Assembly (NCBI RefSeq): GCF_017916255.1
Contig: NZ_CP072827.1
Span: 2,046,001 to 2,110,000, forward strand
Length of the DNA stretch: 64,000 nt
Source of the DNA: Streptomyces mobaraensis NBRC 13819 = DSM 40847
GTDB lineage: Bacteria > Actinomycetota > Actinomycetes > Streptomycetales > Streptomycetaceae
Direction of reading: 5' to 3'
Positions 3,337 to 59,870 of this stretch are shown piece by piece. Positions within the stretch are counted from its first letter, which is position 1. Each line of letters opens with the position of its first letter. Made by a program: the position numbers and the translations under genes. Under the pieces are notes generated by a model. It had not been told where the DNA came from. It was given only the letters and a program-made list of their open reading frames with translations, and ran no database searches.

Positions 3337-5298
3337 GTGCCCGACACGACCGCGACTCTCTTGACCCGGCTCACCGCCCCGGGCCACCCGCCGTTCGCCC
3401 TGCTCCACCGCCGCGCCCCGGGCCTGGCCGGCGACACCGTCGAACTGCTCACCGGCCCCGTCACGGAGGCCGCGCGCCTGGCCGACATCGCGCTGCCGGA
3501 CGGCCCGCCCGCGCCGGGCGCTCCGGCGCACGACGCGCTGGCCCTCGTCCCGTTCCGGCAGCTGCGCGAGCGCGGCTTCGAGGTCCACGACGACGGGACG
3601 CCGCTGCTCGTCCTGTACCCCGAGGAGACGTACGCGCTGCCGCTCGCGGACGTCCTCGCCGCGCTGCCCGCGCACGAGGTGCGGGTGGAGGGCGGCGCGT
3701 TCGACGTCGGCGACGAGGAGTACGCGCGGATCGTCGAGCGGGTCGTCCGGGACGAGATCGGCACCGGCGAGGGGGCGGACTTCGTCGTCCGCCGCACCTT
3801 CGAGGGGGAGGTCCACGGCTTCACGGCGTCCGACGCGCTCGCCCTCTTCCGCCGGCTGCTGTCCGGCGAGCGCGGCGCGTACTGGACGTACGTCGTGCAC
3901 ACCGGCGACCGGACGCTGGTCGGGGCGAGCCCCGAGGTCCATGTGCGGATGTCCGGTGGCACGGTGGTGATGAACCCGATCAGCGGCACCTACCGCTACC
4001 CCGCCGAGGGGCCGTCCGCCGAGGGGCTGCTCGCCTTCCTCCACGACCGCAAGGAGGTGGAGGAGCTGTCCATGGTCGTGGACGAGGAGCTGAAGATGAT
4101 GTGCACCGTCGGCGACCGGGGCGGCGTGGTGATCGGCCCGCGGCTGCGGGAGATGGCCCACCTCGCGCACACCGAGTACGAACTGCGGGGACGGTCGTCG
4201 CTGGACGTACGGGAGGTGCTGAAGGAGACGATGTTCGCGGCGACGGTCACCGGGTCGCCGGTGGAGAACGCCTGCCGCGTCATCCGCCGCCACGAGACCG
4301 GCGGACGCGGCTACTACGCGGGCGCGCTCGCCCTCATCGGCCGCGACGCGGCCGGCGCCCGCACCCTGGACTCGCCCATCCTCATCCGCACCGCCGACAT
4401 CGACCGGCGCGGCCGGCTGCGGCTCTCCGTCGGCGCCACCCTCGTCCGGCACTCCGACCCGCGCGGCGAGGTGGCCGAGACGCACGCGAAGGCGGCGGCC
4501 GTCCTGGCGGCACTCGGCGTCCGGCCGGGTGGCGGACGCCCGGTCGCCGGTGTTTCCGCCCGGCTCGCCGACGACCCGCGGGTCCGGGCGGCGCTCGACG
4601 CGCGGCGGGCCGACCTGGCGCCGTTCTGGCTGCGGATGCGGGACCCCGTCGCGGGCACGGCCTCCGGGCACGCGCTCGTCGTCGACGCCGAGGACACGTT
4701 CACGGCGATGCTCGCCCACCTGCTCCGGGCCTCCGGCCTCGCCGTCACCGTCCGCCGCTTCGACGAGCCCGGCCTGCGCGAGGCGGCCCTCGCCCACGAG
4801 GGCCCGGTCGTCCTGGGCCCCGGCCCCGGCGACCCGTCCGCCGCCGACCCCCGTATGCGCCTGCTGCGCGCGCTGACCGCCGACCTCCTCGCCGGCCACC
4901 GGCACGGCGTCCTCGGCGTCTGCCTCGGCCATGAACTCATCGCCGCCGAGCTGGGGTTGGACATCGTCCGGAAGACCGTGCCCTTCCAGGGCGCCCAGGA
5001 GCGGATCGACTTCTTCGGGGTGCCGGAGACGGTGGGCTTCTACAACACCTTCACGGCGCGCTGCGACGCCGCCGCCGCGGCGGAGCTGGCGGCGCACGGC
5101 GTCGAGGTCGCGGTGCACGCCATGACCCGCGAGGTCCACGCCCTGCGCGGGCCCGGCTTCGCGGGGGTGCAGTTCCATCCGGAGTCGGTGCTGACGCTGG
5201 ATGGTGTGGGGGTGGTGGGGCGGCTGCTGGCCGCGGTGGGTGTGCCCCAGTCCCGCCCCTTCGCCGATTCCCGGGGGCAAGCCCCCCGGACCCCCTGA
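3337..5298 (+). CDS. trpE: Anthranilate synthase, fused TrpE-TrpG
   Basis: Converts chorismate and glutamine to anthranilate, the first committed step of tryptophan synthesis. In this 653-residue fusion residues 1 to about 430 are the chorismate-binding TrpE part ([31 protein letters not shown]) and residues about 450-640 a class I glutamine amidotransferase with nucleophile C529 in GVCLGHE and H614 and E616 in FHPES. GTG 3337 follows GGAAGGA by 9 bases. Fusion is known in Streptomyces; most bacteria keep two subunits. Expression is predicted to be attenuated by trpL. The last residues (about [18 protein letters not shown]) are read from an intergenic repeat (R1), so the tail is probably not part of the fold. 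Confidence 0.95.
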
Positions 5299-5460
5299 TC
5301 GCGGCTCCGCCGCTCGTCCTCAAACGCCGGACGGGCTGAATTCAGCCCGTCCGGCGTTTGAGGACTGGGGGTACCCCCTCTGGGGGAGCCCGCAGGGTGC
5401 TGCGGGGGTGCGGGGGCGGAGCCCCTGCAAGAAACGGCGAAAGGGCGGGACCGGGGCAAC
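5242..5460. repeat. Mosaic palindromic intergenic repeat, copy R1
   Basis: Full-length copy between convergent trpEG and pfkA. Outer arm GTGCCCC..CCGCCC, an inner GGGGGCAAGCCCCC hairpin, a GCGGCTCCGCCGC hairpin, then a 50-bp perfect palindrome without a loop at 5316-5365 (each arm starts GTCCTCAAACGCCGG), followed by the mirrored arms. A CCCCCTCTGGGGG submodule is inserted in the right arm near 5370-5385. It probably acts as a bidirectional terminator. The left arm overlaps the end of trpEG. Confidence 0.9.
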
Positions 5461-5469
5461 CCCCCGGCG

Positions 5470-58453: not shown

Positions 58454-59650
58454 GTGGAACTGACTCTGCTCGGCACCGGGGCCCCCGAAGGGCTGCCGCG
58501 CCCCGGCTGCCCCTGCGCCGCCTGCGCCACCGCCGTGGGCGAGGACGCCCGGGCGGCGACCGCCCTGCTCGTCGACGGCGAACTGCTGCTCGATCTCACG
58601 CCCGGGCCCGCGTTCGCGGCCGCGCGGGCGGGCCGGAGCGTCGCCGGGGTGCGGCAGGTGCTGCTCTCCCACCCGCACGACGGCCCGGCCGTCGAGCTGC
58701 CGCCCGGCCTGCCCGCGCCGGTGCGGGTGCCGGACGGCCGCGACCTGTCGGTGATCAGCGGGCACCGGGTACGGGCGGTGGCCCTGGACGCGCCGGGCAC
58801 GGGCTACGAGGTGACGGGCCCCGACGGCGACCGCCTGCTCTACCTGCCGCCCGGCGGCGCCCCTGCCGGGCTCACCGCCGCGGCCGGCCCGTACGACATC
58901 GTCCTGCTCGACGTCGTGGACCGGCCGGACGCGTTGGCCCGGCTGCGCGAGACGGGCGCGGTCACCGCGACCACGGACGTGATCGCCGTCCACCTCGGCC
59001 ACGAGGTGCCGCCGGGGCGGGAGTTGCGACGCCGGCTGGCCGCGGCCGGGGCGCGGGCCGTCCCGGACGGCAGCACGCTCACCGTCGGCGACTACCACGC
59101 CGTCCCGGACGTGCCCCGGCGCACGCTCGTCCTCGGCGGGGCGCGCTCGGGGAAGTCCGTGGAGGCGGAGCGGCGGCTGGAGTCGTTCCCCGACGTCCTC
59201 TACGTCGCCACCGGCGGCACCCGGAACGGCGACGCCGACTGGGCGGCCCGCGTCGCCCTCCACCGCGAGCGCCGCCCGTCCTCCTGGCGCACGGCCGAGA
59301 CCTGCGACCTCGTCCCCCTCCTCGCCGCCGACGGCCCGCCGCTGCTGATCGACTGCCTCTCCCTGTGGCTCACCCACGCCATGGACTCCGTCTCGGCGTG
59401 GGACGACGCGGCGTGGGCGAACGGGGGGTCCACGGCGTTGGCGCAGCGGGTCGCCTCGCTCGTCCGCGCGGTGCGGGAGACGCGGCGGACCGTTGTCGCC
59501 GTCAGCAACGAGGTCGGGTCCGGAGTGGTGCCCGCGACCGCCTCGGGGCGGCGGTTCCGGGATGAGTTGGGGAGGCTGAACGCGGCGTGGGCGGCGGAGT
59601 GTGAGCATGTGTTGTTGGTGGTGGCGGGGGCGGCGGTGCGGTTGCGGTAG
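58454..59650 (+). CDS. cobU: Metallo-beta-lactamase-like/CobU fusion: adenosylcobinamide kinase/guanylyltransferase
   Basis: A 398-residue fusion. Residues 1-220 resemble a metallo-beta-lactamase/PhnP-type fold (LTLLGTGAPEGLPRPGCPCAAC, LSHPHDGPAVE), but the canonical HxHxDH metal signature is not complete, so activity is doubtful. Residues about 225-398 are CobU with the P-loop GGARSGKS, phosphorylating adenosylcobinamide and adding GMP in cobalamin assembly. The pairing with CobT nearby supports this. GTG 58454 has no ribosome-binding site. R9 follows, interrupting the cobU-cobT pair. Confidence 0.88.
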   Translation: MELTLLGTGAPEGLPRPGCPCAACATAVGEDARAATALLVDGELLLDLTPGPAFAAARAGRSVAGVRQVLLSHPHDGPAVELPPGLPAPVRVPDGRDLSVISGHRVRAVALDAPGTGYEVTGPDGDRLLYLPPGGAPAGLTAAAGPYDIVLLDVVDRPDALARLRETGAVTATTDVIAVHLGHEVPPGRELRRRLAAAGARAVPDGSTLTVGDYHAVPDVPRRTLVLGGARSGKSVEAERRLESFPDVLYVATGGTRNGDADWAARVALHRERRPSSWRTAETCDLVPLLAADGPPLLIDCLSLWLTHAMDSVSAWDDAAWANGGSTALAQRVASLVRAVRETRRTVVAVSNEVGSGVVPATASGRRFRDELGRLNAAWAAECEHVLLVVAGAAVRLR

Positions 59651-59658
59651 GGAGGGGG

Positions 59659-59870
59659 TGTTGCCCCGGTCCCTCCCCCAGAGGGGGACCCCCCTTCGCC
59701 GTTTCCCGGGGCTGCGCCCCGGACCCCCTTTCGCGGCTCCGCCGCTCGTCCTCAAACGCCGGACGGGCTGGAAACCAGCCCGTCCGGCGTTTGAGGACAG
59801 CGCGCGAAGCGTGCTTCGGGGGTCCGGGGGCTTGCCCCCGGGAATCGGCGAAGGGGCGGGACCGGGGCAC
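59659..59870. repeat. Mosaic palindromic repeat, copy R9
   Basis: Between co-directional cobU and cobT. The central palindrome 59748-59798 has perfect 24-bp arms with loop AAA, and again the innermost pairs are GGCTGG/CCAGCC. The CTCCCCCAGAGGGGG module sits in the left outer arm; right hairpins are degenerate (GCGCGCGAAGCGTGC). Confidence 0.9.

What the first reader, a model, noticed from the sequence alone, without database searches (positions are those of the whole stretch)
5242..59870. Nine-copy mosaic palindromic repeat family, always at gene 3' ends
R1 5242-5460, R2 10828-10992, R3 18179-18379, R4 30195-30313, R5 33045-33270, R6 47226-47457, R7 52460-52605, R8 54619-54818 and R9 59659-59870 share the same ordered blocks: an outer GTGCCCCGG arm, GGGGCTGCGCCCC, GCGGCTTCGCCGC, a central GTCCTCAAACGCCGG palindrome, CCGCGCGGAGCGCGG, and AACGGTGAAAGGGCGG. 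All nine lie immediately downstream of a stop codon. Six are between convergent genes (R1, R2, R3, R5, R6, R7) and three after a gene in a same-strand run (R4, R8, R9). They look like mobile or gene-converted bidirectional terminators. Such dispersed repeats are known in Streptomyces genomes in general; their modular assembly and strict 3' placement deserve description.
Basis: partly seen in the sequence, partly recalled or inferred. Interest (0 to 1): 0.8.

Follow-up and report, generated by a model that had tools for sequence, protein, structure and literature searches.

The report
Shuffled palindromes at Streptomyces gene ends
A streptomycete chromosome carries many copies of a roughly 200-base, hairpin-rich DNA repeat that sits right after the stop codons of genes and keeps its places between species while its building blocks are swapped between copies; it resembles known bacterial gene-end repeats but looks like a separate family.

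Summary
The nine repeats are real and belong to a large family: 80 copies of at least 60 bp in 1.66 Mb sampled of a 7.57-Mb Streptomyces genome, none in the reversed sequence. 40 lie between convergent genes, 36 in same-strand intervals, 2 between divergent genes, 2 inside ORFs. The block order is only partly shared, and R1 begins 57 nt inside a gene. Copies are nested palindromes: outer arms, small hairpins, a central 23-bp palindrome. S. huiliensis has a copy at 13 of 14 orthologous places by script, the 14th partial, yet in 11 tested pairs the ortholog was never the best match. A 5.3-kb segment is inverted between the species with both ends in copies. Blocks are therefore exchanged by recombination. 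No Y1/RAYT transposase was found in this genome. At two places a relative carries an unrelated native hairpin instead. A terminator role is plausible but unproven: 0-2 U follow the central hairpin. Genus-wide, three arm 'dialects' share core and layout. Placement at 3' ends is already known for REP elements; I found no description of this family in eight searches of an open-access library.

The parts
5242..5460 (.). R1, convergent; first 57 nt inside the gene 3337-5298, whose stop lies in the repeat; holds the nested G-rich block; right end of the segment inverted in S. huiliensis
10828..10992 (.). R2, convergent; left core half missing
18179..18379 (.). R3, convergent; near-complete copy, used for folding
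30195..30313 (.). R4, same-strand interval; right half missing
33045..33270 (.). R5, convergent; nested block inside the left core half
47226..47457 (.). R6, convergent; nested block in the left core half and in the right outer arm
52460..52605 (.). R7, convergent (downstream of nadA-like gene); left outer arm missing
54619..54818 (.). R8, same-strand interval downstream of a PspAA-like gene; relatives have a native GC hairpin here
59659..59870 (.). R9, same-strand interval; nested block in the left outer arm
34932..34966 (.). reduced copy: only the two outer arms remain, where S. huiliensis has a 150-bp copy and Streptomyces sp. I05A-00742 an unrelated hairpin

Best explanation
A REP/BIME-like family of composite extragenic palindromes of Streptomyces. 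A full copy is a ~200-bp nest: outer inverted arms, two small GC hairpins on each side, and a central 23-bp palindrome with half-site GTCCTCAANCGCCGGACGGGCTG. Shown: copies sit at gene 3' ends, keep their places between species, and have their blocks exchanged among copies, with an inversion whose ends lie in two copies. Shown at two places only: a relative has an unrelated native hairpin where a copy stands. Inferred: exchange and spread use homologous recombination or hairpin-templated strand switching rather than a dedicated transposase, and copies persist at 3' ends because there they break nothing and their RNA hairpins can serve as the 3' end (termination and/or protection) of flanking mRNAs on both strands.
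For: Placement: 40 convergent, 36 co-directional, 2 divergent, 2 in ORFs against 1.8, 7.7, 4.2, 66.2 for uniform placement; median stop-to-copy distance 6.5 nt at 116 gene ends; S. albireticuli 400 kb: 12 convergent, 15 co-directional, 0 divergent, 1 genic core clusters. Exchange: ortholog best match in 0 of 11 pairs, ranks 6-64 of 80; inversion with both ends in copies; all 34 nested blocks have one of three left flanks (22, 9, 3 by my reading) and three copies join an outer-arm left flank to a core-type right flank. Replacement: R8 and the 34.93-kb place; convergent intervals with a copy keep a median 15.5 nt of other sequence against 66 nt for 232 intervals without one. No Y1 transposase in this genome. 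Stems in the small-hairpin slots are better than with permuted arms.
Against: Y1_Tnp is found in 4 of 10 copy-rich and 0 of 12 copy-free genomes tested (p 0.029), which leaves room for a transposase elsewhere in the genus; the three such loci inspected hold no core nearby. Other transposase classes were not searched. Orthologs keep some signal (mean rank 27.8 where chance would be about 40). Single-species genomes cannot separate conversion from loss and re-insertion. S. sennicomposti (L176) has a core half at the R8 place, so polarity there is not certain. No U-tract, no transcript data.
Confidence: 0.55

Rival explanations
1. Selected bidirectional terminators: copies are kept and homogenised mainly because each is a strong U-lacking (I-shaped) terminator for both neighbouring genes.
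For: 3' placement; most stable 60-nt window after the stop is -44.9 against -34.1 kcal/mol (102 ends against a random 300 without a copy); native hairpins at two of the places in relatives; outer arms covary between dialects.
Against: 0-2 U after the central hairpin in all 76 strand readings; 36 of 121 genus genomes lack the core altogether; only 40 of 204 convergent intervals hold a copy; palindromes can also stay paired by self-correction (recalled).
Confidence: 0.25
2. Non-autonomous transposon relics moved by a transposase acting in trans, with later decay; 3' bias only reflects sites where insertion is harmless.
For: Dispersed copies with inverted arms, uneven copy number in the genus, weak association with Y1_Tnp.
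Against: No Y1_Tnp in this genome or in 6 of 10 copy-rich genomes; no target duplication seen by eye at the diverged empty places; places are kept while content changes.
Confidence: 0.12
3. The core half-site is a protein-binding site (for example for a nucleoid or chromosome-organising protein), and the palindromes are its genomic array.
For: The core half-site is nearly invariant between dialects while outer arms change.
Against: 36 of 121 genus genomes lack it; the 3' preference is not explained; no binding protein was sought or known to me.
Confidence: 0.08

Closest known systems
REP / REPIN elements with RAYT (GTAG-tagged REPs)
   Same: Dispersed GC-rich extragenic palindromes; prefer convergent and unidirectional intervals, often within 20 bp of stops; can lie in ORFs and supply TAG stops (PMC3733652, section 15 read).
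   Different: Copies ~200 bp with nested hairpins instead of 20-40-bp units; no Y1/RAYT in this genome; no GTAG-tagged unit hairpin recognised.
CGTC-tagged REPs
   Same: Lack a dedicated transposase (PMC3733652 abstract); often in head-to-head dimers; the half-site here often reads CGTC or TGTC at its outer end.
   Different: The unit does not fold into the 8-9-bp stem reported for CGTC families: best folds are 4-5 pairs or interrupted; pairing arises between two half-sites.
BIME-type mosaics (bacterial interspersed mosaic elements)
   Same: Mosaic of palindromic units in alternating orientation at gene 3' ends.
   Different: Fixed nested layout with interchangeable hairpin slots and outer arms; compared from abstracts and recall only.
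I-shaped / U-lacking structured 3' ends of Streptomyces
   Same: Very stable stems after stops with fewer than 3 U (PMC8269248 passages).
   Different: Here one dispersed repeat family of shared sequence; termination not shown.
Selfish palindromes of organelles (yeast GC clusters, Volvox palindromes)
   Same: Hairpin-rich families that nest and spread without an own transposase (recalled; Volvox abstract listing).
   Different: Bacterial chromosome, tied to gene 3' ends.

Membership tests
REP/REPIN (RAYT-associated) | Dispersed extragenic palindrome, mostly at gene 3' ends | tested here: met
   76 of 80 copies in convergent or co-directional intervals
REP/REPIN (RAYT-associated) | Cognate Y1 tyrosine transposase (RAYT) in the genome | tested here: not met
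   PF01797: 0 matches in this genome, 4 of 22 genus genomes; 3 of 3 Y1 loci inspected hold no core
REP/REPIN (RAYT-associated) | GTAG tag on a 20-40-bp unit hairpin | tested here: inconclusive
   No such unit recognised by reading; TAG stops are enriched at copies, 34 of 102, but no systematic tag search was made
CGTC REP | Unit with CGTC-type tag and an own 8-9-bp stem | tested here: not met
   Half-site folds with 5 pairs or fewer in a row
CGTC REP | No dedicated transposase | tested here: inconclusive
   Y1_Tnp absent here; other transposase classes not searched
Canonical intrinsic terminator | Stem followed by a U-tract (3 or more U in 8 nt) | tested here: not met
   0 of 76 strand readings of complete central palindromes
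I-shaped (U-lacking) terminator | Very stable stem after the stop, without U-tract | tested here: met
   Median -51 kcal/mol, 0-2 U
I-shaped (U-lacking) terminator | Transcripts end there | not testable with these tools
   No transcript-end data for this species
MITE | Terminal inverted repeats of a known transposon and target-site duplication | tested here: inconclusive
   Outer arms are inverted repeats; no duplication seen by eye at R8, R9 and the 34.93-kb place, where empty places are diverged; transposon ends were not searched

The most novel reading that the evidence does not exclude
A transposase-free repeat population of Streptomyces that spreads by taking over resident 3'-end hairpins: conversion or hairpin-templated strand switching overwrites native gene-end hairpins with a nested palindrome, after which copies keep trading modules, so that gene-end places are inherited while their sequence is drawn from a genome-wide pool.
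Probability: 0.3. Interest if true: 0.75.

Novelty: new variant of a known kind. Interest (0 to 1): 0.55.

Why it matters
If right, the 3' ends of many genes in copy-rich Streptomyces are drawn from one recombining repeat family. That bears on how gene-end hairpins evolve in GC-rich genomes, on why U-poor RNA 3' ends are common in Streptomyces, and on small inversions and assembly errors, since these repeats are recombination substrates beside genes. Because places are inherited while content is re-dealt, ectopic conversion becomes measurable by comparing close strains.

Tried and rejected
RAYT-driven REPs as a simple answer: not supported for this genome; the weak association across 22 genomes is told as evidence against. 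Rfam at gathering thresholds: no family at R1-R9. Plasmid or phage carriage with R3 as query: 2 of 72,556 plasmid records with short partial matches (27% and 22% of the query) and 0 of 50,697 phage records (the collections may leave out records very near this genome). Prior description: not found in eight searches of the open-access library; one search looked for six literal sequence strings and found no paper; subscription papers are not held. First alignment A1 held one wrong row (a coding stretch of L119 given by mistake); it was replaced in A2 and A1 is not used. The place list was not used for chromosome-wide counts because only the first places are listed. R3 gave no empty place: in the relatives listed the matches to its two flanks lie roughly 2 kb or more apart, so gene order differs. 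The copy in the P450-like ORF was followed to its S. huiliensis ortholog only, which also has a copy, so it gives no empty place.

Full report
OBSERVATION. The window is bases 2046001-2110000 of a 7.57-Mb single-contig genome; its nearest named relatives are Streptomyces. R1-R9 are related repeats. Genes were called with a home-made codon-usage dynamic-programming script in 1.66 Mb of the chromosome (three segments). With R1-R9 as seeds, blastn at E<=1e-8 gives 81 stretches, 80 of them at least 60 bp, and none in the reversed sequence. The core 20-mer with up to one mismatch occurs 254 times in the whole genome and 0 times read backwards.

PLACEMENT. Of 80 copies, 40 lie between convergent genes, 36 between genes in the same direction, 2 between divergent genes and 2 inside called ORFs; uniform placement gives 1.8, 7.7, 4.2 and 66.2. 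They occupy 40 of 204 convergent, 36 of 625 co-directional and 2 of 272 divergent intervals of at least 30 bp. At the 116 gene ends facing a copy the median distance from stop to copy is 6.5 nt, 85 of 116 lie between -80 and 20 nt, and 21 of 116 overlap the copy; in the 36 co-directional cases the next start is a median 82 nt away. A second species, S. albireticuli (400 kb), gives 12 convergent, 15 co-directional, 0 divergent and 1 genic core cluster. Of the two genic copies, one lies at the 3' end of a cobQ-like gene whose frame runs through it; the other is in frame within a P450-like/PEP-mutase ORF (the P450 likeness is by reading, Pfam reports only PEP_mutase). The two divergent copies look like true exceptions.

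ANATOMY. Read inward from a stop codon, both strands show the same order (102 gene ends): a G-rich or CGCCTGCGGCGGGCTG leader, outer arm GTGCCCCGGTCCCGCCCTTTCACCGTTTC, hairpin H1, ACCCCC, hairpin H2, core half-site GTCCTCAAACGCCGGACGGGCTG, then the mirror image. The H1 and H2 slots hold several different stems; mean stem lengths are 6.4 and 6.2 bp against 5.0 and 4.4 when 3' arms are permuted among 102 half-copies. A nested block around CCCCCAGAGGGGG occurs 26 times in the 1.66 Mb and 8 times in the two relatives' stretches. By my reading all 34 have one of three left flanks (outer arm 22, inside the core half 9, between H2 and core 3), replacing a few bases; three copies in this genome join an outer-arm left flank to a core-type right flank. 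The script placed 24 of the 26 within copies; the other two look like diverged copies. R3 folds at -174.4 kcal/mol (z -14.2).

DISTRIBUTION. In an even sample of the genus, 85 of 121 genomes (this one included) have the core, with 0 to 283 half-sites. In a class-wide sample 14 of 246 do: 13 of 22 in the genus and 1 of 224 outside it, with a single one-mismatch hit. Three dialects were seen with the same layout and core but different outer arms: this genome and S. huiliensis; S. albireticuli/eurocidicus; G078/G108. In 12 copies chosen by me (4, 6 of 8 found, 2 of 2 found) each outer arm pairs with its own partner (mean score 23.6) and with arms of its own dialect (23.0) but poorly across dialects (12.5); RNAalifold shows 15 of 55 pairs with a change on both sides. 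This rests on few independent events, and a palindrome can be corrected by its own other arm (recalled), so it shows kept structure, not its use. In some congeners the half-site occurs singly or in direct tandem arrays.

COMPARISON OF CLOSE SPECIES. Synteny with S. huiliensis (aligned stretches mostly 88-95% identical, a few about 83%) and Streptomyces sp. I05A-00742 (mostly 84-91%, two stretches 76-78%) is good. In S. huiliensis 13 of 14 copies have a copy at the orthologous place by script, counting the two joined by the inversion and one (R2) where 1.9 kb of other DNA also lies between the flanks; R4 has a partial one. In I05A-00742 5 of 7 testable places are occupied, R4 and R8 not. In 11 tested pairs the ortholog was never the best match among the 80 copies (ranks 6 to 64, mean 27.8); best matches were other copies at 80-96% identity, orthologs 76-90%. 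R0, R1 and R4 were left out of that count. The 5.3-kb segment between a copy at window -262 to -62 (outside the window) and R1 is inverted in S. huiliensis, with both alignment ends in copies. Copies of the core at the R6-R9 places are not confined to the three close species: among relatives with intervals under 420 nt, 4 of 39 (R6), 4 of 26 (R7), 2 of 37 (R8) and 2 of 29 (R9) have a core half, including more distant ones such as L127, L138, L155 and L176.

REPLACEMENT. At R8 the five copy-free relatives that I printed (L120, L152, L136, L128, L126) all show a native hairpin of the GCGCCCCCG...CGGGGGCGC type, which is gone in this genome and S. huiliensis. At 34.93 kb S. huiliensis has a copy, this genome only the two outer arms, and I05A-00742 an unrelated hairpin. 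Convergent intervals with a copy keep a median 15.5 nt of other sequence against a median interval of 66 nt in 232 pairs without one. Copies might also simply survive better in short intervals; the two outgroup comparisons argue for replacement but are only two.

MECHANISM. Exchange between copies is shown in outcome (re-dealt content, inversion, chimeras) and inferred in machinery. Y1_Tnp is absent from this genome and from 18 of 22 genus genomes chosen by copy number; it is present in 4 of 10 copy-rich and 0 of 12 copy-free ones (p 0.029), which I report against my reading; none of three such loci holds the core. Other transposase classes were not searched. For the RNA role, complete central palindromes have a median of -51 kcal/mol and 0-2 U in the next 8 nt (76 strand readings), and the most stable 60-nt window after the stop is -44.9 kcal/mol at 102 ends with a copy against -34.1 at 300 random ends without. 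Term-seq work in Streptomyces describes many structured, U-poor 3' ends, read as I-shaped terminators, Rho-dependent ends or processing (PMC8269248 and PMC12207403, passages).

KNOWN RELATIVES. Di Nocera et al. 2013 (PMC3733652: abstract, passages, section 15 read) report that REPs prefer convergent and unidirectional intervals, lie mostly within 20 bp of stops in convergent pairs, can lie in ORFs, that GTAG REPs often supply TAG stops, and that CGTC REPs lack a transposase. Placement is therefore not new. PMC1590033 (passages) reports a general preference of stem-loops for convergent intervals; PMC2267715 and PMC12306157 were seen as passages only and have no mention of Streptomyces in the main text. 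The present family fails the unit-hairpin and RAYT tests and was not found in eight literature searches. I file it as a REP/BIME-like variant with unusually large nested copies and module exchange.

LIMITS. Home-made gene calls; 1.66 of 7.57 Mb sampled; one genome per species; stretches below 60 bp dropped; boundaries are alignment ends; no transcript data.

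Noticed in passing
window 34737-34854 (-): SAM-IV riboswitch (Rfam RF00634, 108.9 bits), the only Rfam match in the window at gathering thresholds.
   Followed up: no
G000:C1:4466117-4467826 (L072:6117-7826, -); L213: A P450-like/PEP-mutase ORF carries a copy in frame; the S. huiliensis ortholog is also open although its copy has different content.
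   Followed up: partly
G000:C1:1775528-1777348 (L015:5528-7348, +): The reading frame of a cobQ-like gene runs through a 74-nt fragment of the repeat at its 3' end.
   Followed up: no
element-facing gene ends in the 1.66 Mb sampled: TAG stop codons are enriched: 34 of 102, against 76 of 471 convergent-type ends without a copy (p 1.5e-4) and 121 of 858 other ends.
   Followed up: partly
L225, L228, L241, L227: In other congeners the core half-site occurs in direct tandem arrays or pairs, with unrelated surroundings.
   Followed up: no
window about 25743-26088 versus S. huiliensis contig G374:C124 at 61510-71501: About 10 kb of extra DNA in S. huiliensis (or lost here) between collinear flanks.
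   Followed up: no
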